35,548 bases of DNA from a virus, in IMG/VR virus record IMGVR_UViG_3300037094_000013, positions 1-35,548 of that record; one strand, written 5' to 3'. Positions within the stretch are counted from its first letter, which is position 1; each line of letters opens with the position of its first letter. Below the pieces are notes generated by a model. The model saw nothing but the letters and a program-made list of their open reading frames with translations, made no database searches and was not told the origin of the DNA. The position numbers and the translations under genes are program-made. Shown one piece after another: positions 2,903 through 30,887 of the stretch.

Positions 2903-3623
2903 GGTTATTTTCTTGTTCTTTTACTAATTCTGAATAATGTTTAATTAAATCCTCCAGTTCACTAACTTGCCATTTCTTAATACTATTTCCTCTATGAACT
3001 AATTTCTCAAACTCCTCCTTACCATACTTTGATATAAGTCTTACTGCGTATTCTCCTACGTTTCCTGACTTAAACAGATTGCAGGATGGACATTGTGCAT
3101 TGCAGTTCATTTCATCCCATCTTGTTGCTTTGTTGGCCCTACCGATAAAATGTCCATTGTGCATCATTTGTCCAGTTCCCTTAGCTCCACAGGTGAAGCA
3201 AGTCCACGAGTCTCTATTACGGATAAACCTAGAGAAAACTGAATCAAGTTTGATTATTGCCCGTCTTAAACTGCGAGGCTTATTTTTTGCGAATTTGGTC
3301 TTCTTGGGACGCACACTTCTTTCGTGCTTAGTACGACTAAAGTGTCCCTTAAACCTCATCCTATCACGACATTTAATACTACAAGTCTCTCTATACCTAT
3401 CCCTCTGTTGTGACTTACTTACATAAAATTCTTTATTGCAATGTCTACATATCATTGGCTTGTTTGTCATTAGAGATAATGAAAAACATTTCTTTGAGCA
3501 GAAGTGGTGGGCTGACCTTTTGACCAGTGCCTGTCGTAAGTACTTTTCCTTTCCACATTGCTGACAAATTATTATCTGGCCATTTCGTGGTTTCCACCCA
3601 TTGCTTTTCATTAAATCTACCAT
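2895..3623 (-). CDS. NinG/Rap-like HNH-type recombination nuclease
   Basis: 242 residues. The C-terminal half resembles lambda NinG (Rap): CFTCG, then HNGHFIGRANKATRWDE, NCNAQCPSCN and SGNVGEYAVRLI, a treble-clef zinc fold with HNH-like residues. The N-terminal half adds two further CxxC/CSxKC zinc knuckles (ICQQCGK with FCSKKC; CRHCNK with CSIKC) and a basic linker (RSVRPKKTKFAKNKPR). NinG proteins act in phage recombination as branched-DNA endonucleases; that role here is inferred from the family. It sits 1 nt after the metallopeptidase gene and overlaps groEL. A plain HNH nuclease is the alternative. The start could be ATG 3623 or 3611. Confidence 0.75.
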   Translation of the reverse strand: MVDLMKSNGWKPRNGQIIICQQCGKEKYLRQALVKRSAHHFCSKKCFSLSLMTNKPMICRHCNKEFYVSKSQQRDRYRETCSIKCRDRMRFKGHFSRTKHERSVRPKKTKFAKNKPRSLRRAIIKLDSVFSRFIRNRDSWTCFTCGAKGTGQMMHNGHFIGRANKATRWDEMNCNAQCPSCNLFKSGNVGEYAVRLISKYGKEEFEKLVHRGNSIKKWQVSELEDLIKHYSELVKEQENNHE

Positions 3624-3624
3624 A

Positions 3625-3900
3625 CTATTTTAATAGCTTGTTATCATGTAGAACTTGATAGAACTGTGCCGAAAGGCTATCGAGCAGAGTATGTCCTTCC
3701 TTGGTGTCGGAGAATGTGGAATTCATTACGTGGAAGATTTCATGTATCAAAGTCTCCTCTTGTTGGGTCTGCGGGACTGAGCCACAGATGTATATCTCAC
3801 CCTTGGTTGAGTCAAAAGCACCATACTTTCCGCTATCATTCTCCATCATCTTAATCTTAATTATATGTCCACCAACCTTTAGTTTCTTTGGAATCTTCAT
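3625..3900 (-). CDS. Small putative zinc metallopeptidase (HEIFH)
   Basis: 91 residues from ATG 3900, which overlaps the previous stop as ATGA; the longer 102-codon frame is less likely. The HEIFH sequence fits the HExxH zinc-peptidase motif, preceded by TQQEETLI and followed by a helix, as in many small phage metallopeptidase-like proteins whose N-termini read MKIPK-LKVGGH. Natural substrates for this phage family are unknown. The third zinc ligand cannot be assigned with confidence. It is one gene of the leftward operon, between a 68-aa gene and the NinG-like gene. Confidence 0.7.
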   Translation of the reverse strand: MKIPKKLKVGGHIIKIKMMENDSGKYGAFDSTKGEIYICGSVPQTQQEETLIHEIFHVMNSTFSDTKEGHTLLDSLSAQFYQVLHDNKLLK

Positions 3901-4103
3901 ATTCTTTTTATTTCTCCAGTAAAGTGGGCACAAAATCCTATTGTATTACTTGCGTTCTCGGGAATGAACCACATGTAAGTTGATGGATAAAATAGTCTTA
4001 CTATGTCTCTGGCCTCTTCCTTAGTTTTCTGGTTTGATTTCACAGAGAATTGGGTAGTGAACTTGTCGTCCCAGAAGTGTCTTGTTACTAAAACTAACCA
4101 CAT
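3897..4103 (-). CDS. Hypothetical 68-aa protein
   Basis: Coding is supported by packing: the ATG lies 1 nt after the stop of the 39-aa gene and its TGA overlaps the metallopeptidase ATG (ATGA). The protein begins MWLVLVTRHFWDDKF and has a mixed alpha/beta character with KTKEEARDIVRLF as the clearest helix. The central W-x-I-P segment may be part of a strand. I do not recognise a family and see no catalytic motif. Confidence 0.6.
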   Translation of the reverse strand: MWLVLVTRHFWDDKFTTQFSVKSNQKTKEEARDIVRLFYPSTYMWFIPENASNTIGFCAHFTGEIKRI

Positions 4104-4104
4104 A

Positions 4105-4224
4105 TTAATGACCCAACTCTGTGTGGATATTACGGACTTCTGTAGACTTCTCTTCCTGTGTGGGGAAGAAAATTTCCTTTGCCTTGCTAATAATTCTAAA
4201 GAATGTAATTGAAACTGATGTCAT
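4105..4224 (-). CDS. Hypothetical 39-aa protein filling an operon gap
   Basis: ATG 4224 to TAA 4105 encodes 39 residues starting MTSVSITFFR and ending HTELGH. It exactly fills the space between the exonuclease stop (4226) and the ATG of the 68-aa gene (4103), with 1-nt gaps on both sides, which is the spacing style of this operon. The protein is moderately charged with no recognisable domain. No Shine-Dalgarno is seen; the upstream sequence is AT-rich (AAAATAAT), like its neighbours. Confidence 0.55.
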   Translation of the reverse strand: MTSVSITFFRIISKAKEIFFPTQEEKSTEVRNIHTELGH

Positions 4225-4969: not shown

Positions 4970-4982
4970 GTTAATGTTATTA

Positions 4983-5150
4983 TTTAAGTGGGGAGCCAAA
5001 GGTAAAGTTTTACAGCTGATAAACCTTTGGATAGATGTGAATACTAATTTTAATCTAGTTGCATCCGTGCCACTACTAAGTCCTTTAGGAACCTTTCATG
5101 CACCTTAGCGCCGTATTCAAGGGCACTTATTCAGTCACTCCCCACTTAAA
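4983..5150 (-). ncRNA. Multibranched structured RNA or 5' leader (about 168 nt)
   Basis: On the minus strand a perfect 13-bp helix joins 5138-5150 with 4983-4995 (TTTAAGTGGGGAG and its complement). Inside are three consecutive hairpins: GTGCC 5122-5126 with GGCAC 5067-5071, holding CTAAG/CTTAG and a TCC-TAAA-GGA tip; GATG 5062-5065 with CATC 5034-5037; and CCAAAGGT with ACCTTTGG (4996-5003 with 5023-5030). All nest without conflict, giving a four-way junction. A strong promoter places the transcript start about 7 nt before the outer helix, and the exonuclease ATG follows 13 nt after it. It could be a riboswitch-like leader or a processed RNA; I match it to no known family. Confidence 0.6.
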
Positions 5151-5164
5151 GAACGACTGAATGA

Positions 5165-6575: not shown

Positions 6576-7412
6576 TTATTCAAAGTTTTGATTACAACGA
6601 TATAGTGTAAGTGCTGCAAGAAACGCCTCACGAACTGTACCCTTCTCGTCATGGATAATTTTAGGCTCGAATGTTGGTGCCCCAAACGGAATGATGATGA
6701 ATGTGTCTACCTCGATAGGATCAAACACTTTCTCTCCCGACGCAGTAAATCCACCAGTCTCTGCAAGTTCAATTGCATATCCACCTATTTGGTAGAATTG
6801 TTCTGCGTATGCAGCCTTAGAACTCTTGAAGTCTATGATTGCAGTCTTACCATTCTTAAGTAATGCACCACAGTCTGTGATGCCACCAAGCCAGTATTGT
6901 TCAGAGTAGGTATATAGTTCTGACCATAGGAACTTCTCTACGTTCTCGTGTGCCCAATCCGCAAATTGATGCACTTGCTCAAACGCTTCTTTTGGTTTGA
7001 TAGGCTTTCCACCTTCCTCAATACAAGACTTTACGTAAGACTCAAGTTCCGCATGCATGTCCTTCCCACCCTTCGCTGCTTTGTTTTTCTTTGTATCGTG
7101 GGCGCGATATGCTTCATCTAGAAGTTTGAGATATTCTTCGTCAAACATCTCTTGAATCTCGACGAACTTTTCTTTCACCAACTCAAGCCTGTCTTCAAAC
7201 TTAACTGTTCTAGGTTTCCCATTAACATACTCGGTAATGGGTGTCCATCCCAGTAATTTGAGACCCTCTCCTACGGCCCACCAGGTCAAAGGCTTTGCTA
7301 TTACTTTGAGTACCTCGGAAGTCCCTGTAAGAGGCTTCCCTCCAAGTGTATGTAAATGTCTTGGTCTATGTGTCTTTGGGTCTAGGTCGTCTTGGAATTT
7401 ATATTCTGACAT
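6576..7412 (-). CDS. PD-(D/E)XK exonuclease of the RecB/Cas4-like type
   Basis: 278 residues. The nuclease core is visible: His120 in GGKDMHAELES, GGITDCGALL with Asp180, AIIDFKSSKA with Asp194 and Lys196, and QIGGYAIEL with Gln208 and Tyr212, the classical motif order of RecB-family and phage recombination exonucleases. The N-terminal ~100 residues are charged and helical. It likely degrades or resects duplex DNA ends in phage recombination, working with the SSB-like protein (8309-8653) and NinG-like nuclease of the same operon. The start ATG 7412 follows an AT-rich leader containing AATAAATAA without a Shine-Dalgarno. Confidence 0.85.
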   Translation of the reverse strand: MSEYKFQDDLDPKTHRPRHLHTLGGKPLTGTSEVLKVIAKPLTWWAVGEGLKLLGWTPITEYVNGKPRTVKFEDRLELVKEKFVEIQEMFDEEYLKLLDEAYRAHDTKKNKAAKGGKDMHAELESYVKSCIEEGGKPIKPKEAFEQVHQFADWAHENVEKFLWSELYTYSEQYWLGGITDCGALLKNGKTAIIDFKSSKAAYAEQFYQIGGYAIELAETGGFTASGEKVFDPIEVDTFIIIPFGAPTFEPKIIHDEKGTVREAFLAALTLYRCNQNFE

Positions 7413-12726: not shown

Positions 12727-13023
12727 TTAGATCGTCCATACATCTGTTTCTCGCTTAGCGTTGTTAATCATCTCGCGCCTGTGGCTTCTAGTGTTGCGTG
12801 TGTGACGATTGCCACCAAGTAACATTTCAAGTGCCAGATCGACCGTGCCGACGTCAATTCCAATTATTGACTCTCTTTCACGCCTTAGTAGTTCTTTAGA
12901 GATAGTGGGGAAAGGATCGGGCATTGGCTTTGTTTTTGCACCAGGTTTAACCATAAGAAACCATTTGTATACAGATTTAAGTGGTAATCCATCATTCCTG
13001 TTCGGCATATTCTGTGATCGCAT
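12727..13023 (-). CDS. Hypothetical 98-aa protein
   Basis: Between the ATP-grasp and primase-helicase genes, overlapping the former by 32 nt if ATG 13023 is used or 17 nt if ATG 13008 is used. It contains a Pro-rich segment (KPMPDPFPTI), an acidic/aliphatic stretch (IIGIDVGTVDLALEML) and a basic C-terminal region (RHTRNTRSHRREM). I recognise no domain. A helicase-loader-like role would be typical of the position but nothing in the sequence proves it. Confidence 0.6.
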   Translation of the reverse strand: MRSQNMPNRNDGLPLKSVYKWFLMVKPGAKTKPMPDPFPTISKELLRRERESIIGIDVGTVDLALEMLLGGNRHTRNTRSHRREMINNAKRETDVWTI

Positions 13024-13759
13024 TAGCGTAGGCAGTTTGTCCCATCGGGCTAACGCCCGCCGCCGTGCCTACCTCTAGGACGTATGATCTGTCCCGATAT
13101 CTGATAATGTCCACCGCCCCAAAATCAAGCCCCAATGCCTCTATTGCCTCTCTAGCGCGAAGTACAACACCCTCTCTAGGGGAGACATCGCGCAAGAAGT
13201 AAAAGCCGTTGTGGGCGTTTTTAATGCGTTCTGCGGGGGCCGCCTCGTAAGTGCCATCCTCGCGCTGTTTCATTTTCTTGGCATAGTCAATTGCTTCGCC
13301 CTTAAAAATGTGAACACGATATTCCTCGCACGGATTGAGTAGCTTTGTGTAAAGCGGGGCTGGCTGGATCGTGTCGGGGGTAGATATACGAATACCCGCC
13401 CCCCCACTACCCGTAAGCGTGTGTCGCTCTACGATGTCATGCCACTGTCGTGCCTCGTCTATGTCCACTGTCCACGGTACTGTTCGCACTCCAGCCTCGC
13501 TTAGTTTTTCAAAAGTTCGTAGCTTATTTACTGCCAGTGCTACTGCACTTGGCTTGTTCAAAATCTGTTCGGGATTGTATGCCCATTGTGGCTCTCTAGA
13601 ATTACCCCAGTTGACAATTAGATCATCAACACGACTAGTATAGCGACGATTAGGATACACCCTAATTGTGTTTTTCCCATTATTACGTTGAAGCGCGTCG
13701 GCTATACCCCGTGAAGACGCACTGGCTATTTTGTAAGGAAAAATGACGATCCTACCCAT
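12992..13759 (-). CDS. ATP-grasp ligase-like protein
   Basis: 255 residues. An N-terminal region (VNWGNSREPQW, NKPSAVALAVNKLRTFEKL) precedes the ATP-grasp core: ERHTLTGSGGAGIRI as the glycine-rich loop, EEYRVHIFKGEAI, and the metal-binding end LDFGAVDIIRYRDRSYVLEVGTA. This architecture recurs in phage ATP-grasp proteins that comparative genomics groups with phage amidoligases and class II glutamine amidotransferases. It may join amino acids or amines to peptides together with the products of 16727-21929, although it lies in the opposite, replication operon. GC content is higher than in adjacent genes. The exact substrate is unknown. Confidence 0.75.
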   Translation of the reverse strand: MGRIVIFPYKIASASSRGIADALQRNNGKNTIRVYPNRRYTSRVDDLIVNWGNSREPQWAYNPEQILNKPSAVALAVNKLRTFEKLSEAGVRTVPWTVDIDEARQWHDIVERHTLTGSGGAGIRISTPDTIQPAPLYTKLLNPCEEYRVHIFKGEAIDYAKKMKQREDGTYEAAPAERIKNAHNGFYFLRDVSPREGVVLRAREAIEALGLDFGAVDIIRYRDRSYVLEVGTAAGVSPMGQTAYANAITEYAEQE

Positions 13760-13813
13760 ATAAAAATCATCAAACTATTAAGTTTTGCAATCGGCCCTGC
13801 ACTGTTAAAAACA

Positions 13814-13842
13814 ATCTTATCATGCTTTTCTCATGAAATCAA
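13814..13842 (-). promoter_or_regulatory. Possible internal promoter TTGATT-N17-TAAGAT
   Basis: On the minus strand the -35 TTGATT (13837-13842), 17-bp spacer and -10 TAAGAT (13814-13819) lie at the end of the initiator gene, 55 nt before the ATP-grasp ATG. The -10 is weaker than at the other promoters, so this is tentative. Confidence 0.3.
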
Positions 13843-14649
13843 GTGTTCTACGCTGTTAAACAACTCTTTACAAAGTGTGTCAAGATACTTCGTAAGTTCG
13901 GTGTCATGATCTTGGCCCCACATTGAGGCAGTTGGCTCATTAGCCATAAGGTAAGTTTCGTACTGCCCCACGTTATTATAAAGCCATGTAAGGGGAAATC
14001 CAGCCTCATAAGCCTTATCCCACATGAAATCGTCATTACCCGTCATTCCTCGCCACTCAAAATGCTGGAACATGAAACACCCAGCTTGTGCAAGCGTGTG
14101 TGTTTTAAGTATCCTCTCTAGGGCTTTATAGGTGGCGGGGTATGAGGGTAGCTTAGGCAGGTTTCCGTAGTTAAACTTGTATAGGTTTTGATAGAGCTGG
14201 ATAAGAGTGTCAACACTCGTCCTGTTAGGCTTAATAGGATCGGATGTAATCTTATTACTCTCTCTTATATTACTCTCTCCTATGTTACTCTCTCTGTCAA
14301 TCTGTGCATTGGACGGATTTACATCTGTAGATTGGACGACCCCTTGTGTAGATTGGACGGTATTGACTGAAAACGAAATAAGTGTCTTAATCTGTTGCCT
14401 ATGATGATTCTTTCCATCGTCGAAAAAGGATCGCTGTATGTACCCTAGTTTTTCAAGTTCACGCAGAACATTTGTAACGGTATCGGGTGCGGTTTTCGCT
14501 ACCCTAGCAATCTCGTCATTTGATGCAAAGCACTTTCCGTCCTTTAAGTGTTCGTACCAATAAAGCGTAGCATAAACACGATGATGCACTCCTGTCAAGT
14601 GTTCATCGTTTATAAGTCTATAGGGTATGATAAAAAAGTCTGGCGTCAT
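13831..14649 (-). CDS. Replication initiator-like winged-helix protein
   Basis: 272 residues. The N-terminal ~80 residues form a winged helix (FFIIPYRLINDEHL, then CFASNDEIARVAKTAPDTVTNVLRELEKLGYI), typical of phage replication initiators and O-like proteins. The middle is low-complexity and carries the ESNI repeat encoded by three 15-bp DNA repeats plus VQST repeats. The C-terminal part (PATYKALERILKTH, FEWRGMTGNDDFMWDKAYEAGFPLTWLYNN) resembles the C-terminal region of such initiators. The gene heads the replication operon, overlapping the Cys-rich peptide gene as ATGA. By analogy with lambda O, the repeats inside the gene may be the origin. Confidence 0.7.
   Translation of the reverse strand: MTPDFFIIPYRLINDEHLTGVHHRVYATLYWYEHLKDGKCFASNDEIARVAKTAPDTVTNVLRELEKLGYIQRSFFDDGKNHHRQQIKTLISFSVNTVQSTQGVVQSTDVNPSNAQIDRESNIGESNIRESNKITSDPIKPNRTSVDTLIQLYQNLYKFNYGNLPKLPSYPATYKALERILKTHTLAQAGCFMFQHFEWRGMTGNDDFMWDKAYEAGFPLTWLYNNVGQYETYLMANEPTASMWGQDHDTELTKYLDTLCKELFNSVEHLIS
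14254..14359. repeat. Iteron-like repeats inside the initiator gene (putative origin)
   Basis: Three tandem 15-bp units occupy 14254-14268, 14269-14283 and 14284-14298 (core TTACTCTCTC). Next come three copies of ATTGGACG at 14308, 14331 and 14352, spaced 23 and 21 bp, two of them inside the longer TGTAGATTGGACG. About two helical turns between copies suits protein binding on one DNA face. Repeats in the middle of an initiator gene are the layout of lambda-type origins. Confidence 0.55.
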
Positions 14650-14786
14650 GTCATATCATCGTCTTCGATGAATAGGTCAAAATCGGGCATTTCATCGTCG
14701 GCGTGATCCTTGCACTCAAAAATACAAAGTTCATGATCGCCAAGCTCACAGTTTAGACAGTCACAGTAACATTCATTTTCTGGCAT
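14646..14786 (-). CDS. 46-aa Cys-rich acidic protein
   Basis: ATG 14786 to TGA 14646, ending with an ATGA overlap into the initiator gene, which supports translation. Six Cys occur in the first 25 residues (ECYCDCLNCELGDHELCIFEC) spaced as possible metal ligands, and the C-terminal half is strongly acidic (DDEMPDFDLFIEDDD). It may bind zinc and mimic nucleic acid or bind a basic partner, but this is inference. It is the first gene of the leftward operon and is preceded by AATAAATTAAAATT without a Shine-Dalgarno. Confidence 0.6.
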   Translation of the reverse strand: MPENECYCDCLNCELGDHELCIFECKDHADDEMPDFDLFIEDDDMT

Positions 14787-14805
14787 AATTTTAATTTATT
14801 GCACA

Positions 14806-14826
14806 TGGTGGGTACTGCCCCCACCA
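14806..14826 (-). promoter_or_regulatory. GC-rich hairpin in the leader of the leftward operon
   Basis: TGGTGGG (14806-14812) pairs with CCCACCA (14820-14826) around a 7-nt loop, 20 nt upstream of the first ATG of the operon. No T-run follows on either strand, so it is more likely a leader or RNA-stability hairpin than a terminator. Confidence 0.45.
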
Positions 14827-14892
14827 ATTCCCCTACTAATTCGTGGTTGCGGCCACTAAGAATGGGCGGTTGACTCTAGCCTGATGTGCTAT

Positions 14893-14907
14893 GTGGCGGC
14901 TCGCCAC
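14893..14907 (-). other. Hairpin just after the tRNA 3' end
   Basis: GTGGCG (14893-14898) pairs with CGCCAC (14902-14907) around a 3-nt loop, 5 nt from the tRNA 3' end on the minus strand. It lacks a U-tract and may mark a processing point or weak terminator. Confidence 0.4.
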
Positions 14908-14912
14908 CTATA

Positions 14913-14981
14913 TTACGGGGATGGGATCGAACCACCGCTAGCGAGTTTCAAGTCGCCGTGCCCGCTTACACTAACCCGTAA
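14913..14981 (-). tRNA. tRNA-like gene, probable anticodon UGA, eight-nt anticodon loop
   Basis: On the minus strand the 7-bp acceptor stem is TTACGGG/CCCGTAA, the D arm GTG-TAAGCGGG-CAC, and the T arm GGTGG-TTCGATC-CCATC with the canonical TTCGA loop. The anticodon stem GGCGA/TCGCT leaves an 8-nt loop CTTGAAAC (14945-14952). With U33 in its normal place the anticodon is TGA (14948-14950), which would read serine UCA, but there is no long variable arm as serine tRNAs have. At 69 nt it is short, and CCA is not encoded. The identity is therefore uncertain; it could be a decoy, frameshift or degenerate tRNA. Confidence 0.7.
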
Positions 14982-15000
14982 CTTTGAGGGGCTTTGATGG

Positions 15001-16380
15001 ACGGACAGCCCTCACACCGTTTAGAAAATCCCCCAGCGACATAGTAGCCTATGATATGTTGCCTTTAGGCACTATCAGAATATAATCGGTGGCTACACAG
15101 TAGCGCGATATATCTCATGAATAGCGGCGAAACAGGATTAAGTTCCGACTGGGGGATACGCAAGAAATTGCGGTATCTTGCGGGGTAGATGTCACAAGCC
15201 CTCATGGACAATGTGGCCTACGATCTGATAGTAGGACGTACACACGGTGTATTCCTAAGATCAGTCTTTCTAGGGGCCATAGCCCCTTGACTGGTGCGTC
15301 CTTAGCGATGTATATATCGAATACACCTCAAATGGGATAGCACAAGCCGAGGATAGGACAACAAGTTTATAACTTGTCGTATAGCGGCGATTTTTGGGTT
15401 TCATTAAGCTACACCATACGGCACACCCTGTGTATGAAAAGGGCTTTGTATATGTAGCACCGCTATGTGATGGTCTAAAAACCGCGCCTTCTTCCGTATA
15501 TGGGAAGTCGTAGATTTTGGCGCGGTTTCTAAACCACCACCATTTTTCTGTACCGTGTTGTGCGAGTGATGTCTACCTGTTGGCATTTGTCTACGGATCG
15601 GGCGTGGATAAATTATCCCGCTTCTAGGCCGCTAGCTGGCGACTAAGTTCGCCTATAGATCATCCTAAGCCAGTATCGCTTTGGTCACAAATGGGCCTAA
15701 CTCCATCGCAGTTTGATCCGCGAAGTCTAGCAAACTATTACCTACGCTACAACAATCACGCACTTTGAAAACAATTAAGGGCACGATTGCTACTTAGCAC
15801 TTGCACTCATGGTAGATACAGCCGTTAGGGATGTATCACACGCACAGCACAGTACAGAACATGTGAAAGATCATTACTGGGAACATTCTACTCCCCACCC
15901 CCACTTGCTGTCAAGCGATTATTGTGTCCGAGTATGCGTAAGCCCCAGTGAAGTAGTAATTTAGCGATTCCTCTATACAGAGCTTGCGAGAGCTACAAGA
16001 CACTACGCAAACACGGCCAAACATATTGCGAAAGATTGCACGATAGTATCCCGATTTAACGTGTAAGATTTTCATAGGCCAAGTACCATTTTAAGCTGTT
16101 TAATGGCTGACTCCCTTGTCCGTCCGTAGACACCCACCGATCCACGCTTAGCACACCACCAGCCAGCATGTTCACCGCTTAAAACTTTATATGTGTACAT
16201 AACACATTAGTTTAGTTTGTAAACTTTACACCGTTACGACTTAGGTGTAACATAAGGATAGCAAGTAGATACACGCAGTCAACTATGCACACTTGCATAA
16301 CTGTGTTGTATTGCAAAAAGTCATTCTGCACGATAAAAAACACTTGCGGTCAAGTAGGTACATGTGATAGTCTTATACGC
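15001..16380 (+). ncRNA. Candidate giant structured RNA region (about 1.4 kb, no convincing gene)
   Basis: There are no packed reading frames here, but many stable helices. Examples: CCCCAG 15031-15036 with CTGGGG 15149-15154; CATAG/CTATG 15040-15053; a GATAC-GCAA stem capped by a GAAA tetraloop (15155-15177); AGGACG 15232-15237 with CGTCCT 15297-15302 enclosing two hairpins; ACAAGTT/AACTTGT 15361-15377; a 10-bp helix AAACCGCGCC/GGCGCGGTTT (15479-15488 with 15519-15528); GGATAA/TTATCC; GATACA/TGTATC; and TTACACC/GGTGTAA near 16226-16250. Place beside a phage tRNA and size recall the GOLLD and ROOL giant RNAs of phages. The GAAA loop favours the plus strand. Limits and strand are not fixed, and I identified no family consensus. 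Confidence 0.5.
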
Positions 16381-16383
16381 AGG

Positions 16384-16394
16384 AAAGGAGGTGA
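16384..16394 (+). promoter_or_regulatory. Near-perfect Shine-Dalgarno
   Basis: AAAGGAGGTGA is complementary to almost the entire 16S rRNA anti-SD tail, 5 nt before the ATG at 16400. It decides that start and contrasts with the AT-rich, SD-free starts of most other genes in the window. Confidence 0.8.
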
Positions 16395-16399
16395 TTTAG

Positions 16400-16576
16400 A
16401 TGCTTCTAAAATGTGATTGGTGCGGGATCAAGTTCGCCAACGCACCGGTGCATTACGCTCATAGGCATTTTTGCCGTGAGACATGCAAAATGGATTGGGT
16501 CGAGACTCAAACCAGAATAGCGGAAGCGCAAAGACAAGAACACGCATACAAGAACCAAGTGCGGCGAACACAGTAA
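16400..16576 (+). CDS. 58-aa zinc-knuckle protein with strong ribosome binding site
   Basis: Starts MLLKCDWCG and has CDWC (5-8) and CRETC (25-29), a treble-clef/FCS-like zinc knuckle, then a long charged helix (WVETQTRIAEAQRQEHAYKN). Family unknown; it may be an RNA- or protein-binding adaptor. The SD is exceptionally strong, suggesting high expression. It sits directly after the structured region and before the hairpin and leader of the amidoligase gene. Confidence 0.7.
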   Translation: MLLKCDWCGIKFANAPVHYAHRHFCRETCKMDWVETQTRIAEAQRQEHAYKNQVRRTQ

Positions 16577-16584
16577 TGGCTTTA

Positions 16585-16608
16585 GGGAGTGTGCCTTAAA
16601 ACACTCCC
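16585..16608 (+). terminator. Hairpin after the zinc-knuckle gene (weak terminator or processing site)
   Basis: GGGAGTGT (16585-16592) pairs with ACACTCCC (16601-16608) 8 nt after the stop of the 58-aa gene. There is no U-tract, so it may only slow or protect the transcript. Confidence 0.4.
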
Positions 16609-16631
16609 ACCAATTATAAATTTATTATTTA

Positions 16632-16702
16632 GGTGGGGGGCAACAAAAACCACACATGATCCGCAGTATTGGGCGCACCCATACGGGATAATCCCCCCAC
16701 CC
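16632..16702 (+). promoter_or_regulatory. Structured leader of the amidoligase operon
   Basis: GGTGGGGGG (16632-16640) pairs over 9 bp with CCCCCCACC (16694-16702), enclosing a second helix built from ATCC/GGAT, GTA/TAC and TGGG-CGCA-CCCA. The fold ends 24 nt before the amidoligase ATG (16727), whose immediate leader is A-rich (AAATAAAACAAACAAT). A riboswitch or translational control element is possible; no known class is recognised. Confidence 0.5.
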
Positions 16703-16726
16703 AAGTAATCAAATAAAACAAACAAT

Positions 16727-18295
16727 ATGCCTAACGCACCACAAAATAACCAACCCACACAGGCACAGCAAAATATGGAGCAACTGCGTAGGGGTTTGTT
16801 AGAAGACTTTGTACCAGATCGTCATTTGATAGGATGTGATCGTTGCGGTGGGGTAATAGAAGAAAATGCACAGAGAGTTGAGGGGATGTTTGGCTTTAGG
16901 ATTCTTTGTGCGCCGTGCTTCATTGAGCTAACAAGAAACCAAGAAGTTTTTGAGCCTCATGATAAAAAAAAGCCCAAGCCTAAGTTTGAACAAGGCACGA
17001 TCATCAAGTCGGATCGCCAGTTTGGACTAGAGTTTGAAGTGAACCTAGACCTTGCTGGGCAACATACACTACGCGACCTTGTGGCCCGTGATTTTAACCT
17101 AGTTCACGATGGTAGCGTAAACGCTGGTATAGAGGTAGTTTCTCCCATACTTTGCGGTAAGACAGGCGAAGACAAGATAAAAGCCATGTGTTCCTCACTA
17201 CAAAAGGTAAAGGCTGGCGCAGATGATAGCTGTGGACTTCATGTTCACATTGACGCCGCAGATTATTTTGAGAACACAAGAATAGATCTCACCACCCTTT
17301 CGGTGATCGGTAAAATAAGAGACTGTAGAATATACGTTTTGGACGCCACCCTACAAAAGACAATGCGCGAGGATAACTACGGGCTATGGGAGGCTGTCTA
17401 TTCTAACGGATCGCTAGATCAATTCACGGTCAACGAGTTTCTGGATTATATGCAAAGTGGAAAGTCCGTAGCAAACCTACCCGTTGTGTGGGCAGATGAT
17501 GGAAAAGTTGCAGAAACTTTTATACAATTCTACACGCCGATTGGATCGCGTGGTGCAAGAATTAAAAACAACGACAGTATAAAGACGGAGGCAGACATTA
17601 AAAAATATCACGGTGAACCATCCCTTGTCACGTTCGGATATTCCAAGTTTGTTGTCATAGACAGGGAGACTTCTAATAATCTTTATTGTGTTTGTGTACC
17701 TAAGTCTTATAGCAAGGGAGATAAGGATCGCCTAGATAGAATTAAGCGCGTGGCCTCATTCTATATCGCATTTGATGACGTGCTTGCCGCGATGTTGCCA
17801 TGTGATAGACGCGACAATGACTTTGCGATCCGTGCGTCAACGCGCATGTCCATACGAGACGTATCGGTTTGCGCTTCTATCCTTGACTTTTTCAACGCAT
17901 GGACAAAGACAAAGGACTTGCGTGGATTCAGACTGTCAATGGGAGAACAACGACACGAAAGCCGATACTATGGGATCAATTTTAGGGCATTATTAAAACA
18001 CGGCACTATCGAGATTCGATATCACGCAGGTACTACAGACGCCGACAAAGCTCTCCACTGGACTGCTCTACATCAGCGTATTGTGGACATCGCCGCAGAC
18101 CTAAAAGACCCCCGCTTTAACCTTGACAGATTGGAAAAGGCAGACATGGTTATCGAAATAGATCGTAAGGCAGACCTATTTTTCGCCAAGCTAAACCTAC
18201 CAAGCGATACAGAGACATACTTGCGTAAGCGCATATCTGAGTATTCTGGTGAGGATTCACATTTTGTTGAAAGTTTAATCGCAGACGATAAATAA
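16727..18295 (+). CDS. Amidoligase-family enzyme (PF12224-like) with N-terminal zinc knuckle
   Basis: 522 residues. A zinc knuckle (CDRC 37-40; CAPC 61-64) precedes an amidoligase core of the glutamine-synthetase-like COOH-NH2 ligase superfamily: FGLEFEVN (99-106), HDGS (127-130), GIEVVSP (134-140), CGLHVHID (169-176) and later GTIEIRYHAGTTDADKA. Family members are predicted to make amide bonds between carboxylates and amines using ATP. It is the first gene of an operon with a glutamine amidotransferase, a second amidoligase and a gamma-glutamylcyclotransferase, so a peptide- or cell-wall-modifying pathway is likely. The exact substrate cannot be read from sequence. Confidence 0.8.
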   Translation: MPNAPQNNQPTQAQQNMEQLRRGLLEDFVPDRHLIGCDRCGGVIEENAQRVEGMFGFRILCAPCFIELTRNQEVFEPHDKKKPKPKFEQGTIIKSDRQFGLEFEVNLDLAGQHTLRDLVARDFNLVHDGSVNAGIEVVSPILCGKTGEDKIKAMCSSLQKVKAGADDSCGLHVHIDAADYFENTRIDLTTLSVIGKIRDCRIYVLDATLQKTMREDNYGLWEAVYSNGSLDQFTVNEFLDYMQSGKSVANLPVVWADDGKVAETFIQFYTPIGSRGARIKNNDSIKTEADIKKYHGEPSLVTFGYSKFVVIDRETSNNLYCVCVPKSYSKGDKDRLDRIKRVASFYIAFDDVLAAMLPCDRRDNDFAIRASTRMSIRDVSVCASILDFFNAWTKTKDLRGFRLSMGEQRHESRYYGINFRALLKHGTIEIRYHAGTTDADKALHWTALHQRIVDIAADLKDPRFNLDRLEKADMVIEIDRKADLFFAKLNLPSDTETYLRKRISEYSGEDSHFVESLIADDK

Positions 18296-18301
18296 TAATT
18301 T

Positions 18302-19750
18302 ATGTGTGGTATCTTATGGGTAGATAGTAAACGTGGTATGAGTGCTGTAAAGCCACTAATAAAGCGATACCGAAAACAGGATCATCGCGGAAAGTCGGGA
18401 TATGGTTACGTTGCGGTAGATGCCAACGGATTCGTTGGTGAGATACACCGCAGTACAGACGAAGACGGGATCATGGAGGCACTTGCAAGTGAACAGTCTA
18501 GTAAGATTCTGTTTCATCATCGCTCCCCCACAAGTCTACCTAACTATGTGGGCGCAACCCACCCATTCAAGATCAGTAAGGACGATTTTGATTTTGATTA
18601 TTACATCGTACATAACGGCGTGATCGCTAATGCAGAGTTTCTTTTTGGTGAATACAAAAAGGCTGGTATAAAGTTCATGTCCGAAATGGCAGAGGGAAAA
18701 TACCATGAGTTTGTCAACACCGACGAATACTACGAGGACTTGGAAACTAAAACAAAGGTAAACGATAGCGAGGTTTTTGCAGTTGACATGGCCGCATTTA
18801 TCGAGGGAAAGCAAACGTGGGTAAAGTCGGCGGGCACCATCGCTTTCATTGGCCTACAAGTATTCAAGAATGGTAAGGACGCTGGCAAGGTCAACTCCCT
18901 ATTTTGGGGACGAAATAATGGCAATCCTGTATGCCTAGAAGAAGACAATGTTTTGTTCACATTGTCAAGCGAAGCTGGTGGAAAAGAAGTAGACGCTGAC
19001 AAAATATATTTCAAAAACTGGCAGACAGGCGAGATCACCACCAAACAAGCCAACGGTATTGCTTATCATGGATTCTCTACAAATGCAAGCGGAATCAAAA
19101 ATGTACATAAGACTAAAGCCGAAAGAAAGGCAGAACGTTGCGCCGCGCGTAAGGCTGGCCAGTCCAACGGCCTACCCGAAGATGCTGTTATACTCTATGA
19201 TGGTGGCCCTAACGAGCCAGAACCAGACCCCGAAATTGACGACGCCGTTGCAAGAATGACGGGCACAAGGATAGAGTCACACCCCTCATTTGATTGGATA
19301 GAAACCCTTAAAGCAACGCAAGATCAAGACGTAAACTTAAAGACCATGTGGGGACTTCTACCCACAAAGTCTAAATTACTTGCCGCAGGTGCCGCAGAGC
19401 AAGTAGAGGATATGACGCTTATTGACATCGGCATTGACCTTAACGCAATAGACAATGAGATCGAAGCGGCAGACATGGGGCGTGGTGACGCAGACGCAGG
19501 GCTGTTGCGACAATTGCGCGACGATTTACAGGATGATCTTGATAGTGAAAATGACGCACTAAGGGAGTTGCGATCTGCACAAGAATTGTTGCGTGAGGCC
19601 GTACAAGCAAAGCCATTCATTCTTAAAGACAGTGAAGAAGCAAAAGCCATGGTGGACGCCGCAAGCTCACAGTGGGGCGAGGCACACAACGCCCGTATTG
19701 CTACATGTGCCGAACTAGAAGCTCACATGGGTGCCTATGGTGGATGGTGA
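18302..19750 (+). CDS. Class II glutamine amidotransferase
   Basis: 482 residues. The N-terminal Ntn-hydrolase domain is diagnostic: MCGILWVD with catalytic Cys2 (exposed after Met removal), FHHRSPTS (71-78), ATHPF (85-89) and VHNGVIAN (103-110). The domain would hydrolyse glutamine to supply ammonia. The C-terminal 200 residues are acidic and coiled-coil-like (RQLRDDLQDDLDSENDALRE) with no synthetase domain, so ammonia would be delivered to a partner, probably the amidoligases beside it. It starts 6 nt after the first amidoligase and overlaps the 110-aa gene. Confidence 0.85.
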   Translation: MCGILWVDSKRGMSAVKPLIKRYRKQDHRGKSGYGYVAVDANGFVGEIHRSTDEDGIMEALASEQSSKILFHHRSPTSLPNYVGATHPFKISKDDFDFDYYIVHNGVIANAEFLFGEYKKAGIKFMSEMAEGKYHEFVNTDEYYEDLETKTKVNDSEVFAVDMAAFIEGKQTWVKSAGTIAFIGLQVFKNGKDAGKVNSLFWGRNNGNPVCLEEDNVLFTLSSEAGGKEVDADKIYFKNWQTGEITTKQANGIAYHGFSTNASGIKNVHKTKAERKAERCAARKAGQSNGLPEDAVILYDGGPNEPEPDPEIDDAVARMTGTRIESHPSFDWIETLKATQDQDVNLKTMWGLLPTKSKLLAAGAAEQVEDMTLIDIGIDLNAIDNEIEAADMGRGDADAGLLRQLRDDLQDDLDSENDALRELRSAQELLREAVQAKPFILKDSEEAKAMVDAASSQWGEAHNARIATCAELEAHMGAYGGW

Positions 19751-20069
19751 ATGGGTAAAAACAGGTAAGGTATGGATCAAGATTTATCCCACAAAAAAGA
19801 AAGATATGCTCTCTAAAAGCGTCCCCGTAGCAATACAATTTAACCTAGAGTGCGAGAACGGACGCAAGGCACAGCGTGTAGTCCCGTTGCGGGGTAGGGA
19901 TGTTGACACTTGCTTATATCGTGTTAGCCGACAAATCGTAGAAGCCAGCGATCTTGTTAGCAAAAATATGTGGATCGAGGAACACAAAGTAATTTACGAC
20001 TTGCCATTACCAGACGAGATGAAATTATTAGACGTGCCAGAACGGAGTGTGAATTATAAATTAAGTTGA
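19737..20069 (+). CDS. Hypothetical 110-aa protein in the amidoligase operon
   Basis: ATG 19737 lies in the last codons of the amidotransferase gene (14-nt overlap); a GTG at 19731 is possible. It begins MVDGEWVKTGKVWIKIYP, contains alternating hydrophobic strands (VPVAIQFNLEC; RKAQRVVPLRG) and a helix (RVSRQIVEASDLV). No catalytic motif or family is recognised. Tight packing between pathway enzymes suggests a partner or regulatory subunit. Confidence 0.65.
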   Translation: MVDGEWVKTGKVWIKIYPTKKKDMLSKSVPVAIQFNLECENGRKAQRVVPLRGRDVDTCLYRVSRQIVEASDLVSKNMWIEEHKVIYDLPLPDEMKLLDVPERSVNYKLS

Positions 20070-20073
20070 CGCC

Positions 20074-21174
20074 ATGAACGCCTTAACATACTACAGCATT
20101 TCGATGGGGTGTGATCCAGAGTTTTTCTTTAGCAAGGATGGTAAAATCGTTGGTAGTGAAAAGCTGATACCCAAAGAAGGGAAAGTATTGTTTAACAAGG
20201 GTGACAGCACAATGGGAACACACGCGCTCACTTCCGATTCAGTTGCCGGAAAGATCATCATAGATGGTGTGCAAGCCGAACTGAACCCGCGCCCACACTC
20301 ATGCCGTGCAACATTGGGAAATGAGATCGCGTGGTGTTTCCGTAAGATCAAGAATGAGTTATTGAAAGACGGCAATACCATAGATTTCTCACAAGCCGTT
20401 GAAGTCTCTAAGGAGGAGATGGATAGCCTTAGTGCGTCGTCTAAGCGTTTTGGATGTTCGCCATCACACAATGCCTACGCAGAGGATGGCAATAGTAAAA
20501 TCACCGTCAATCCGTTAGTCTATCGTACCCGTGCGGCAGGTGGGCATATTCATCTTGGCCCGAACCCATCCGACACGCTAGAGACGCAACGCAAGATCAA
20601 GGATGCACTTGACAATCATAAGATTATAGTGCCTATTCTAGACTTGATTGTAGGCAATACTTGTGTTCTGGTAGACAGGAACCCGTCAAACATAGAGCGA
20701 CGCAAGGTATATGGCAAGGCAGGTGAATACCGTACCCCAAAATACGGGCTGGAATACCGCACCTTGTCTAACTTCTGGCTAACATCATACCCACTGTTTG
20801 GAATGGCCTTTGGGCTTGCTAGGCTCGCGGTAAATATCGTTGCAAACGATACAGAGGACTTTTCCTACTCTAAAGCATTATTGGAAAAGGTGCGTATGCG
20901 CGATGTTGTTAAAGCGATCAACGAAAATGACTTCGACCTTGCGTTGAAAAACTTTAACGCGATAAAGCCGTTGCTCATAGAAATGGTGGGTGTTGGAGGC
21001 CATCATCCCATTACAACGGGAAACATCGCATATTTTGAACACTTTATCACTAAGCCCATGTCCTATTGGTTTAAGGAAAACCCCCTAGACCATTGGATCG
21101 GACTTGGCGATGGTCATGCTGGGGGATTCGAGGACTTTCTAGCAAAGGTCGTTTCTAAGGACATGGTAAAGTAG
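20074..21174 (+). CDS. phiEco32-type COOH-NH2 ligase (amidoligase type 2)
   Basis: 366 residues. It shows the family's sequence landmarks in order: MGCDPEFFF (11-19), DGVQAELNPRP (64-74), AAGGHIHLGP (154-163) and GLEYRTLSNFW (225-235), with acid and His residues that would bind ATP-metal as in glutamine-synthetase-like ligases. This is the family first described in phage phiEco32 and predicted to form amide links. It is distinct from the amidoligase at 16727, so the cluster has two ligases of the superfamily. It lies 4 nt after the 110-aa gene and 1 nt before the next gene. Confidence 0.85.
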   Translation: MNALTYYSISMGCDPEFFFSKDGKIVGSEKLIPKEGKVLFNKGDSTMGTHALTSDSVAGKIIIDGVQAELNPRPHSCRATLGNEIAWCFRKIKNELLKDGNTIDFSQAVEVSKEEMDSLSASSKRFGCSPSHNAYAEDGNSKITVNPLVYRTRAAGGHIHLGPNPSDTLETQRKIKDALDNHKIIVPILDLIVGNTCVLVDRNPSNIERRKVYGKAGEYRTPKYGLEYRTLSNFWLTSYPLFGMAFGLARLAVNIVANDTEDFSYSKALLEKVRMRDVVKAINENDFDLALKNFNAIKPLLIEMVGVGGHHPITTGNIAYFEHFITKPMSYWFKENPLDHWIGLGDGHAGGFEDFLAKVVSKDMVK

Positions 21175-21175
21175 T

Positions 21176-21529
21176 ATGGAAATTGAACAAATAGCTTCAT
21201 GTTGTGGGATCGGTGAAATGGCTGATTTGGATAGTAGTGCTGTAGGAAATATGTACATGTTTTGTGAAAGTGAGACTCCATACTCAAACGATAGATATAA
21301 TCTCTACGTTTTCACAGACGCAGTTTATAATCGTAGAGGATCAAAACTAGCCGCATACATTATTCGCAATCAGTTAGGAACAATCACAGCTAGTCCCCGT
21401 AGAATAGGTCACAGTGGACGAAATGTTCAATTATGGATATGGAGTGTGGATTGGGACAAAATGGAAGAATGGGCCAAAAAGCACAATTGCTTTAGACTAG
21501 AAGACGGCGACGATGGTTATAACTGGTAG
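21176..21529 (+). CDS. Hypothetical 117-aa protein in the amidoligase operon
   Basis: Starts MEIEQIASCCGIGEM 1 nt after the ligase stop. It contains YNLYVFTDAVYNRRGSKLA, probably strand-helix, and an aromatic strand QLWIWSVDWDKMEEW. The lone CC pair is not a zinc site. I do not recognise a family. A conserved operon position would suggest a subunit or substrate-binding role, but this is inference. Confidence 0.65.
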   Translation: MEIEQIASCCGIGEMADLDSSAVGNMYMFCESETPYSNDRYNLYVFTDAVYNRRGSKLAAYIIRNQLGTITASPRRIGHSGRNVQLWIWSVDWDKMEEWAKKHNCFRLEDGDDGYNW

Positions 21530-21530
21530 T

Positions 21531-21929
21531 ATGATACAACAACCAAAAAAATTAGTAGCGTGCTTCGGTACACTCAAAAAAGGATTCTATAATCATGAAA
21601 TGCTGGGTAACGCCAAGTTCATGGGATCGGTGGACGTAAAGGGAGTAATGTATCTACACGGCACATATCCAAGATTGTATCACGCGATAAAAGACGATCC
21701 ACACTTTGGATTCGATAAGGAACGTCATCATACCGCAGAGATATATTATGTAGAGTATCCACTATACGAGGATATCTTATACATGGAACGTGGTGCTGGA
21801 TATGTTGAAGAAACAATAGACACGGGAGATGGTAAGGCGTCTATCTTTTTCAATCCACATGAAGTTTTTTCCCCCGATTATGACAAGTGGATCGAGTCTT
21901 ATACGCAGTCATTATTCGATAATAAATAA
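21531..21929 (+). CDS. Gamma-glutamylcyclotransferase-like (AIG2/GGCT) protein
   Basis: 132 residues from ATG 21531, directly after the previous stop. ACFGTLKKGFYNHEML (residues 10-25) matches the glycine-loop signature YGTL-x-G-x-x-N of the GGCT fold, followed by beta strands (GVMYLHG, EIYYVEY) and DILYMERGAGYVEE, which holds the candidate catalytic Glu and the G-Y element. GGCT proteins cleave or cyclise gamma-glutamyl linkages. In an amidoligase operon it could edit or reverse a gamma-glutamyl conjugate. Presence next to GATase and COOH-NH2 ligase fits published gene-neighbourhood predictions for phage amidoligase systems. Confidence 0.8.
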   Translation: MIQQPKKLVACFGTLKKGFYNHEMLGNAKFMGSVDVKGVMYLHGTYPRLYHAIKDDPHFGFDKERHHTAEIYYVEYPLYEDILYMERGAGYVEETIDTGDGKASIFFNPHEVFSPDYDKWIESYTQSLFDNK

Positions 21930-24880: not shown

Positions 24881-25364
24881 CGTTGTGTAATTCGCTCCCC
24901 GTATTACACATCACATATAGAGGGTTTACAAGTGATGTATAGGTATAGTAGAGTATATATGGCTTAGTGCTGTTAGGTATTAGGCCATACAGTGCGTAGA
25001 GTGTCCATGACGGCGCATAGATGGGCACGTATGTAGCCTCCCACGCACCGAGACAAGCGTGTATATATATGCTATATACTATCACACATACTACGTGCAC
25101 TGTCAATCGCGCACCCACACACGCTATATGGCCATAGGGGAGCATATATTACAACACGTGGATATGTCTTGACACAAGGGGATGGTTTGTGGCGTAATCG
25201 GCGGCGCTCTCTAGTCTATCCGAAGGATTCCTTTGTCTCTCGGCACGGGTATGGCCCCCATACACCTTATGGGTTGAAGCCACCCCACCCAAAATTTTTC
25301 ATATTTCTTTATATTTTGTTACCATTGAGCTTGCCTCAAGACCCCCAATCACCTACTTAGCCCA
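24881..25364. other. Non-coding interval before the packaging operon
   Basis: About 480 bp with no convincing gene. It contains a 7-bp inverted repeat ACATCAC/GTGATGT (24908-24938), an AT-rich tract with TATATATA steps around 25060-25080, and a GTATGG/CCATAC hairpin near 25250-25265. A TTGACA at 25169 lacks a good -10. I see no origin, attachment site or tRNA with confidence. Confidence 0.5.
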
Positions 25365-25393
25365 TTGACAATTGACCCCTATTAAGCTATACT
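25365..25393 (+). promoter_or_regulatory. Consensus promoter for the packaging operon, leaderless arrangement
   Basis: -35 TTGACA (25365-25370), 17-bp spacer, -10 TATACT (25388-25393). The ATG at 25403 is 9 bp past the -10, so a start 6-8 bp downstream gives an RNA with at most about 3 leader bases. Confidence 0.8.
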
Positions 25394-25402
25394 GTTCCAA
25401 TC

Positions 25403-25978
25403 ATGGCATTAAAAGGAATTGTACCTGTTTACTCTACAGTAAAGGAGTTGATTGAAAAGCACGGGGGAGAAATTTTCCTTGCACTAGGAAAGGGAACTGC
25501 TCTTGAGGTGGCTAAGGAATATGGATTTGGTTCTTATTATAAGAACGAAAGGTCTATGAAGTCTGCTGTAATGAGAGCCTTTAACATAGTAAGAGATGAA
25601 CCTAATAAGTGGGGGATCAGTCTTGAGTCAGTAAAAGAGGTGGAGAAGTCTATCAAGGACAGGGCACCTAAACAAACTTCTATTATTGAGGTGGAAAAGC
25701 AAGATCTTGGAACACTTTTAACTGGTACCAGAGATCTAGCAGGACAGTTAATTAGGAGAAAATTGGACCAATTAGATAAAGACCCAAAAGCTTTGCAGGC
25801 CGAGAAGCTTAAGGATCTTGGTTGGTTATTTGGGGTATTATTCGATAAGGGTCAGATAATGGCTGGAAAGGCAACTGAGCATGTGGCCCTTATGTCTAAT
25901 ATTCCAGACCATCTAGACCCAGATGAAGCATTAAAGGCCATCATGCAAATGAGGGAAGAAATGCAACGTAAGGACTAA
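25403..25978 (+). CDS. Probable terminase small subunit
   Basis: 191 residues, two genes upstream of the large terminase. The N-terminal part has a helix-turn-helix-like segment (GTALEVAKEYGFGSYYKNERSM) suited to recognising the packaging site, and the remainder is helical (LTGTRDLAGQLIRRKLDQL; EKLKDLGWLFGVLFDKGQ), as in small terminase oligomerisation regions. Small terminases diverge strongly, so position and fold pattern are the main evidence. Transcription starts just before the ATG, giving a leaderless message. Confidence 0.65.
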   Translation: MALKGIVPVYSTVKELIEKHGGEIFLALGKGTALEVAKEYGFGSYYKNERSMKSAVMRAFNIVRDEPNKWGISLESVKEVEKSIKDRAPKQTSIIEVEKQDLGTLLTGTRDLAGQLIRRKLDQLDKDPKALQAEKLKDLGWLFGVLFDKGQIMAGKATEHVALMSNIPDHLDPDEALKAIMQMREEMQRKD

Positions 25979-28005: not shown

Positions 28006-28374
28006 ATGTCTAAAGGAACACGTTGGTTTAGGCGTCTTAGAAAAGAGTGTGAGAAGATATCACCTCTACTTAGGTTTAAAAGGATTAAATACGGTTTCTA
28101 CCGTATCTATTATCAACAGGCATATATTGGAGAATGCTCTAAGGATATGACTGAGATTGGTTATGATATTGAGGAAAAGAACTACCACTTTGAGGATAAC
28201 AGTTATAGACAGGAGTACGAGGACTTAATGGAAACAACTGCTAGAGTAAAGAACTTTAGAGAGGGATATTGGGATAACCTTGATAGAATTCGTACGCGGG
28301 TGTACATGTTCAAATCAAATAAGGAGTTCTACGATAATGCTATAAATGGCTATAAACAAATGAGGATCAAGTAA
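28006..28374 (+). CDS. Hypothetical 122-aa protein between terminase and portal
   Basis: Starts MSKGTRWFRRLRKECEKIS. It is Tyr- and charge-rich with a strand YGFYRIYYQQAYIGEC and a helix (QEYEDLMETTARVKNF). No family is recognised; the terminase-portal interval often encodes small head or packaging accessories. The portal promoter overlaps the region just after its stop. Confidence 0.65.
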   Translation: MSKGTRWFRRLRKECEKISPLLRFKRIKYGFYRIYYQQAYIGECSKDMTEIGYDIEEKNYHFEDNSYRQEYEDLMETTARVKNFREGYWDNLDRIRTRVYMFKSNKEFYDNAINGYKQMRIK

Positions 28375-30762: not shown

Positions 30763-30771
30763 TGTTACAGT
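30743..30771 (+). promoter_or_regulatory. Promoter TTGACA-N17-TACAGT before the scaffold gene
   Basis: -35 TTGACA (30743-30748), 17-bp spacer, -10 TACAGT (30766-30771). The predicted start near 30778 leads straight into a chain of hairpins and then the scaffold ATG at 30922. Confidence 0.65.
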
Positions 30772-30789
30772 ACTCATAGTTTGACTGTG

Positions 30790-30887
30790 AGTGGTCCCCC
30801 GACCCTGCCTCGGGGAACCACTGACCGCCAAACGGTCAGAACCATAAGGTCGTTCCAGGACTCAACCTGGTCTGGGCATGAACCAGA
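30790..30887 (+). ncRNA. Five-hairpin structured leader of the scaffold-capsid transcript
   Basis: Consecutive stems: AGTGGT-C-CCCCG with CGGGG-A-ACCACT (30790-30822), GACCG/CGGTC (30823-30837), ACC/GGT (30841-30850), CCAGG/CCTGG (30855-30870) and TCTGG/CCAGA (30871-30887). They fill most of the ~145-nt leader between promoter and ATG 30922, and no gene is present. This may stabilise the message, regulate it, or be a separate small RNA. No known family is recognised. Confidence 0.55.

What the first reader, a model, noticed from the sequence alone, without database searches (positions are those of the whole stretch)
15001..16380. 1.4-kb gene-free region packed with RNA helices: candidate giant phage RNA
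In a genome where genes overlap by 4 nt, this is a striking gap. It contains many perfect stems up to 10 bp, a 9-bp stem with a GAAA tetraloop, a three-way junction (15232-15302), and internal repeats (ATAGCGGCGA at 15121 and 15381; CACAAGCC followed by GGACAA at about 15193 and 15341). Size, density and the nearby tRNA resemble the giant ornate RNAs GOLLD and ROOL known from phages, but I see no consensus that proves membership.
Basis: partly seen in the sequence, partly recalled or inferred. Interest (0 to 1): 0.85.

Follow-up and report, generated by a model that had tools for sequence, protein, structure and literature searches.

The report
Stalk-closed RNA elements beside phage tRNA
A stretch of about 0.9 kb without genes, next to a tRNA in an uncultured phage, is predicted to fold into several long-stemmed RNA structures; related phages carry similar elements whose stems are conserved as RNA, so it looks like an uncatalogued set of phage RNAs rather than a copy of the known giant RNAs.

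Summary
The gap is real, but its gene-free, structured part is about 14983-15910; two small leftward ORFs probably fill 15911-16200. Rfam finds only a weak tRNA, so GOLLD and ROOL are not met. Folding is far beyond chance (14985-15878: z -8.4 minus, -5.8 plus). The stems at 15546-15859 and 15467-15540 beat every shuffle. The window's only near-consensus leftward promoter lies just upstream, the tRNA just downstream. One distant syntenic relative, G004, has the same layout, but structural alignment did not prove homology of the two RNAs.

The stronger result is in the phage family. Relatives carry many noncoding elements closed by long terminal stems with differing insides, some in tRNA slots, some at the same gene junction. 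Wobbles in the stems lie on the transcribed strand (45 to 10; 14 of 14 elements), and four positional orthologues show double compensatory changes in 9 of 19 stem pairs. I read the locus as a tandem of such stalk-closed RNAs plus a tRNA, probably cut out by RNase III and RNase P. The cutting, and any function beyond it, is inference; no transcription data exist.

The parts
14911..14982 (-). tRNA gene with an 8-nt anticodon loop (CTTGAAAC), no encoded CCA
   Evidence: ARAGORN, anticodon printed as four bases tgaa; Rfam tRNA 28.4 bits, cut-off 29
14983..15466 (-). Structured noncoding segment just upstream of the tRNA: several hairpins and a CCCCCAG/CTGGGGG-closed domain (15028-15157)
   Evidence: 15000-15560: z -6.4 minus, -5.0 plus; centroid structure; 15028-15157 z -4.4 minus
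15467..15540 (-). D2: 74-nt hairpin closed by a 22-bp stem, perfect on the minus strand (three G-U pairs that are A-C on the plus strand)
   Evidence: z -10.1 minus, -6.0 plus
15541..15545 (.). 5-nt linker CATTT between D2 and D1
15546..15859 (.). D1: 314-nt element closed by a 25-column stem (22 Watson-Crick, one wobble on each strand, one mismatch), extendable to 39 columns; strand not decided
   Evidence: best stem of the window, above all shuffles; wobbles 5 plus, 1 minus over 39 columns; core checked; z -3.6 minus, -5.3 plus
15885..15914 (-). Promoter-like site TTGACA-18-TAGAAT (11 of 12), predicted start about 15878
   Evidence: the only site of 11 of 12 or better on the minus strand of the window; chance of one in the gap 0.016
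15911..16075 (-). Probable small ORF, 54 aa, weak similarity to the 28006-28374 protein family
   Evidence: E 0.04-0.07; no PHROG or Pfam match
16072..16200 (-). Possible small ORF, 42 aa, overlapping the next by ATGA
   Evidence: Pfam DUF7387 E 0.31 only
16621..16712 (+). Stem of 20 columns, inner 52 nt, in the leader of the amidoligase gene
   Evidence: score 16.6
4976..5157 (-). Element with a 20-column closing stem next to the exonuclease gene, a position where several relatives also carry one
   Evidence: score 16.3

Best explanation
The locus most likely encodes a leftward transcript made of tandem, separately folded RNA elements closed by long terminal stems (D1, D2 and the structured segment to about 14985), followed by a tRNA and then the replication genes. 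The stems of 22-25 bp are of the length RNase III cuts, as in the stalks around rRNA precursors; RNase P would cut at the tRNA 5' end. Cutting would free small structured RNAs and separate them from the downstream mRNA. Shown by computation: the structure excess, the promoter-like site, the tRNA, and RNA-level selection on the stems of the same kind of element in related phages. Inferred: transcription, the cutting, release of the RNAs, and that D1 and D2 belong to that class. What the freed RNAs do is open; my best guess is a small stable RNA role alongside the phage tRNAs.
For: Structure: z -8.4 minus for 14985-15878; D1 and D2 are among the three best stems of the window. Layout shared with G004: its best stem also lies in the syntenic gap (L112:10936-11040), a near-consensus minus-strand promoter lies in each gap (chance 0.016 and 0.0065), and a tRNA or tRNA-like gene closes the transcript in each. 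Family: long-stem noncoding elements with an inner part of 20 nt or more are 2.8 against 0.8 per 10 kb non-ORF in unrelated phage contigs (overlapping pieces not removed). Wobbles of elements between same-strand genes lie on the coding strand, 45 to 10, 14 of 14 elements, P 8e-6 after composition correction; controls show no such bias but are few. Four positional orthologues (A11): 98.7% paired, 9 of 19 pairs with double changes, 0 of 500 shuffles; A12: 8 of 22 pairs; L122/L133: 4 of 23 pairs. Elements fill tRNA slots with spacers of 0-5 nt in two arrays (L017:2457-2590, L135:6052-6174 and 6617-6738, z -7.1 to -7.5). The D1-D2 linker is 5 nt.
Against: No homologue of D1 or D2 could be aligned, so covariation is not shown for the window's own RNA. 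Wobble direction in the window as a whole is neutral (20 plus, 17 minus), and D1 leans to the plus strand. A structural alignment of window and G004 scored no better than controls. No expression data. RNase III and RNase P cutting is untested.
Confidence: 0.48

Rival explanations
1. One giant ornate RNA of about 0.9 kb, analogous to GOLLD or ROOL, ending at the tRNA; the stems are domains of one fold that may oligomerise.
For: Size, phage origin and tRNA neighbour as in PMC12286853; whole transcript z -8.4; similar length in G004 (promoter to tRNA-like gene about 0.8 kb).
Against: No Rfam match. The predicted fold shows separately closed domains; relatives carry comparable elements singly, at scattered sites. 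Structural alignment to G004 not above controls.
Confidence: 0.2
2. A long structured 5' leader of the leftward replication operon that controls its expression (attenuation, antitermination or mRNA stability), with an embedded tRNA.
For: Promoter-like site upstream and DnaD-like/primase operon downstream on the same strand; other leaders here are structured too (16621-16712).
Against: tRNA processing would cut leader from mRNA; relatives have such elements inside tRNA arrays and between late genes.
Confidence: 0.17
3. DNA-level element: replication origin or similar, with inverted repeats extruded as DNA hairpins.
For: Cumulative GC skew minimum lies here, next to a DnaD-like initiator gene; one DnaA-like 9-mer at 15611(-).
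Against: Skew turns wherever gene direction turns; no iterons. In relatives the wobbles are on the transcribed strand, which DNA-level repeats do not predict; the minus-strand fold is stronger here and in G004.
Confidence: 0.08
4. Decayed tRNA array or decayed genes.
For: Some relatives carry 22-24 tRNAs; one extra T-arm-like hairpin at 15326(-).
Against: No similarity to 92 tRNAs of relatives beyond one 16-nt match, E 0.31; decay would not leave 22- and 25-bp stems; no protein match in six frames except weak ones.
Confidence: 0.05

Closest known systems
T4 stable RNAs rnaC and rnaD (species 1 and 2, NC_000866)
   Same: Small stable RNAs of 139 and 119 nt inside a phage tRNA cluster, spaced by 1-6 nt; rnaC folds strongly (z -4.1).
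   Different: No long closing stem: rnaC ends in a T-arm, and rnaD is not unusually stable (z -0.8). The tRNA-like RNA of G004 (L112:10593-10443 minus) resembles rnaC more than anything in the window does.
GOLLD RNA
   Same: Phage-encoded, often over 800 nt, near tRNAs (PMC12286853).
   Different: Rfam model does not match.
ROOL RNA
   Same: Large structured RNA of phages and prophages, often near tRNA islands (PMC12286853); a 520-nt abundant RNA on a Lactobacillus megaplasmid is the concomitantly reported case (PMC5643018).
   Different: Rfam model does not match.
rRNA-precursor stalks and phage T7 RNase III sites (from general knowledge)
   Same: Long terminal stems of about 20-26 bp that bracket an RNA and mark it for RNase III.
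   Different: Here the bracketed RNA is small, variable and not rRNA; cutting is not tested.

Membership tests
GOLLD (Rfam) | Match to the Rfam covariance model | tested here: not met
   No match at gathering score or at E up to 10 (G004)
GOLLD (Rfam) | Encoded in phage or prophage near tRNA, over about 800 nt | tested here: met
   tRNA at 14911-14982, structured stretch about 0.9 kb; circumstantial only
ROOL (Rfam) | Match to the Rfam covariance model | tested here: not met
GOLLD / ROOL | Homo-oligomeric cage | not testable with these tools
   needs cryo-EM or mass photometry
Stalk-closed RNA elements of this phage family (defined here) | Noncoding element closed by a stem scoring above shuffles | tested here: met
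   D1 and D2
Stalk-closed RNA elements of this phage family (defined here) | Covarying closing stem among orthologues | tested here: inconclusive
   Shown for relatives; no alignable orthologue of D1 or D2
Stalk-closed RNA elements of this phage family (defined here) | Wobbles of the stem on the transcribed strand | tested here: inconclusive
   D2 3 to 0 for minus, D1 5 to 1 for plus; flanking genes diverge, so sense is not given
tRNA | Cloverleaf found by ARAGORN and Rfam | tested here: inconclusive
   ARAGORN yes with four-base anticodon; Rfam 28.4 bits against 29
T4 rnaC-like RNA | T-arm at the 3' end of a 120-150-nt RNA in a tRNA cluster | tested here: not met
   The only T-arms in the gap are the tRNA's and one at 15326

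The most novel reading that the evidence does not exclude
This phage family carries an undescribed class of RNA modules: a conserved, covarying stalk of about 20-26 bp around a rapidly changing inner RNA, placed in tRNA slots and at fixed gene junctions, cut out of polycistronic transcripts and used by the phage; the window holds a tandem of them in one RNA locus.
Probability: 0.35. Interest if true: 0.8.

Novelty: new variant of a known kind. Interest (0 to 1): 0.6.

Why it matters
Phage genomes are tightly packed, so 0.9 kb of structured noncoding sequence must earn its place. If the elements are cut-out stable RNAs, uncultured phages hold a store of small RNAs that sequence searches miss because only the closing stem is conserved, and that can be found by the stem and its one-sided wobbles. 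It would also give T4 rnaC and rnaD, stable RNAs in a phage tRNA cluster, a comparative setting.

Tried and rejected
Close homologues of the window: scans with amidoligase, primase and COOH.NH2 ligase gave none, distant ones, or only G004; the terminase scan gave the family. The shared 18-mer AAGCCC..ATGGACAATG (window 15196, L112 10690; alignment shuffle P 0.024) looked like a conserved hairpin, but a pattern scan found it elsewhere only inside ORFs. My first impression that window and G004 share a domain order was not upheld by structural alignment: 2684 against controls of 1970-4111; the top control hits looked like chance matches. Wobble direction as strand proof for the window alone: rejected, it is neutral. 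A scan for the odd tRNA found no relative. A terminase scan of bacterial genomes gave only distant hits and no host. A rule of structure upstream of every tRNA in the family did not hold. Alignments of wider sets of positional orthologues were too diverged to use. Folding runs timed out and were repeated in smaller form.

Full report
Setting. The window is a 35,548-base record of an uncultured phage with terminase, portal, major capsid, GroEL, a primase-helicase, a DnaD-like replication protein and a set of amide-bond ligases. The gap lies between leftward replication genes (46-aa ORF 14646-14786, DnaD-like 13831-14649) and rightward genes (58-aa ORF 16400-16576, amidoligase from 16727).

Observation. 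The gap and the repeats are there. The structural excess is real but narrower than claimed. For 14985-15878 the fold energy is 8.4 standard deviations below dinucleotide shuffles on the minus strand and 5.8 on the plus strand. For 15540-16200 the minus-strand value is -0.15. Eleven coding stretches of 500 bases gave values between about +1.8 and -2.9. The three best stems of 14985-15878 exceed all 100 shuffles. The part 15911-16200 probably holds two small minus-strand ORFs; the second resembles, weakly, a protein family encoded next to the terminase (E 0.04-0.07).

Known families. Rfam 15 gives nothing at gathering score in the window, and at E up to 10 only a tRNA at 28.4 bits and a snoRNA chance match. 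GOLLD and ROOL are therefore not met by their models. Their described context (phage, near tRNA, large; PMC12286853, PMC5643018) is shared in part.

Strand and promoter. On the minus strand the whole window has one promoter-like site of 11 of 12 matches, TTGACA-18-TAGAAT at 15914-15885, in this gap. G004, the only relative with the same gene order here, also has a minus-strand site of 11 of 12 in its gap, at L112:11438-11410. The chance of one in each gap is 0.016 and 0.0065. In G004 the minus strand also folds better (z -4.7 against -2.2), and its best stem (L112:10936-11040) is in the gap. In the window the 22-bp D2 stem is perfect only on the minus strand, but D1 leans to the plus strand and the sum of wobbles is neutral (20 to 17). 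So the minus strand is favoured, not proven.

Homology to G004. An 18-mer is shared (shuffle P 0.024). I do not claim that the two RNAs are shown to be homologous; synteny, promoter, tRNA and the long stem are the shared points.

The family. The terminase scan gave a family of related phages. In pieces of these genomes, noncoding elements with a closing stem scoring 17 or more and at least 20 nt inside occur at 2.8 per 10 kb of non-ORF sequence, against 0.8 in unrelated phage contigs (overlapping pieces were not removed from that count). After removing duplicates 38 elements remained, with an inner part of 15 nt or more. Few resemble each other in sequence; the clearest pairs share only the closing stem (L130:9506-9635 with L132:12843-12968, and L135:6052-6174 with L135:6617-6738). 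In two tRNA arrays they fill a tRNA slot with spacers of 0-5 nt (L017:2457-2590, L135:6052-6174, L135:6617-6738; z -7.1 to -7.5). Two others enclose a real tRNA (L119:12452-12555, L138:4741-4836).

RNA-level selection. A stem kept as DNA has no reason to prefer G-T over A-C mismatches on one strand; a stem kept as RNA does. For elements with an inner part of 60 nt or more between two genes of the same strand, wobbles on the coding strand number 45 and on the other strand 10, all 14 elements leaning the same way (P 8e-6 after correcting for composition). Control contigs show no bias, but hold few such elements. Elements recur at the same junctions: between the GGCT-like and COOH.NH2-ligase genes in five genomes, near the exonuclease gene in several including the window (4976-5157), and between GGCT and the small terminase. 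Four orthologues at the last site align over their closing stem with 98.7% of cells paired, 9 of 19 pairs with changes on both sides, and 0 of 500 shuffles as good in pairing or covariation score. A second set of three gives 8 of 22 pairs, a pair near the exonuclease 4 of 23. The structures counted were drawn from the stems found in single sequences, so the percentage paired leans towards them; the double changes do not depend on that.

Reading. The window's gap holds two stems of this kind, D1 (15546-15859) and D2 (15467-15540), 5 nt apart, then a structured stretch to 14985 and a tRNA. I take it as a tandem of stalk-closed RNAs ahead of a tRNA, released by RNase III at the stalks and RNase P at the tRNA. 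RNase III and RNase P are inferred from what such stems and tRNAs do in bacteria in general; nothing here tests them. That D1 and D2 belong to the class rests on likeness and family, not on orthology. A single giant RNA and a long leader remain possible.

Nearest known. T4 rnaC and rnaD are stable RNAs in a phage tRNA cluster. They lack the long stalk; rnaC has a T-arm at its 3' end, as does a tRNA-like RNA of about 150 nt in G004. The window's elements are therefore like them in place, not in build. A short literature search found no description of such elements in phages, but the library holds open-licence papers only.

Noticed in passing
window 14911-14982(-); L133:9387-9481(+): tRNA genes that ARAGORN prints with four-base anticodons (tgaa; gatt in the relative G030), i.e. 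8-nt anticodon loops.
   Followed up: partly
L112:10440-10593(-): tRNA-like RNA of about 150 nt in G004 with acceptor stem, T-arm and two large arms; resembles T4 rnaC; Rfam tRNA-Sec only 17.6 bits.
   Followed up: partly
L017:2457-2590: Element in a tRNA slot that holds a T-arm (ATAGGTTCGAATCCTAT) followed by a hairpin that could be a closed acceptor stem; possibly a permuted tRNA-like core on a long stalk.
   Followed up: no
window 30765-30847: Second-best stem of the window (38 columns, GC-rich core) between genes downstream of the portal gene.
   Followed up: no
L118, L127, L130, L132 upstream of TerS: A conserved stretch of about 55-70 nt upstream of the small terminase gene in several relatives; not seen in the window.
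   Followed up: no
window 25364-25403: Plus-strand promoter-like site of 11 of 12 just upstream of the small terminase gene.
   Followed up: no
window 12992-21929: Cluster of amide-bond enzymes: S6-glutaminyl-transferase-like, two amidoligase-type ligases, glutamine amidotransferase-like, GGCT-like; the ligase genes are inverted in window and G004 against other relatives.
   Followed up: no
L017:4263-4574: A tmRNA gene inside a tRNA array of a related phage.
   Followed up: no
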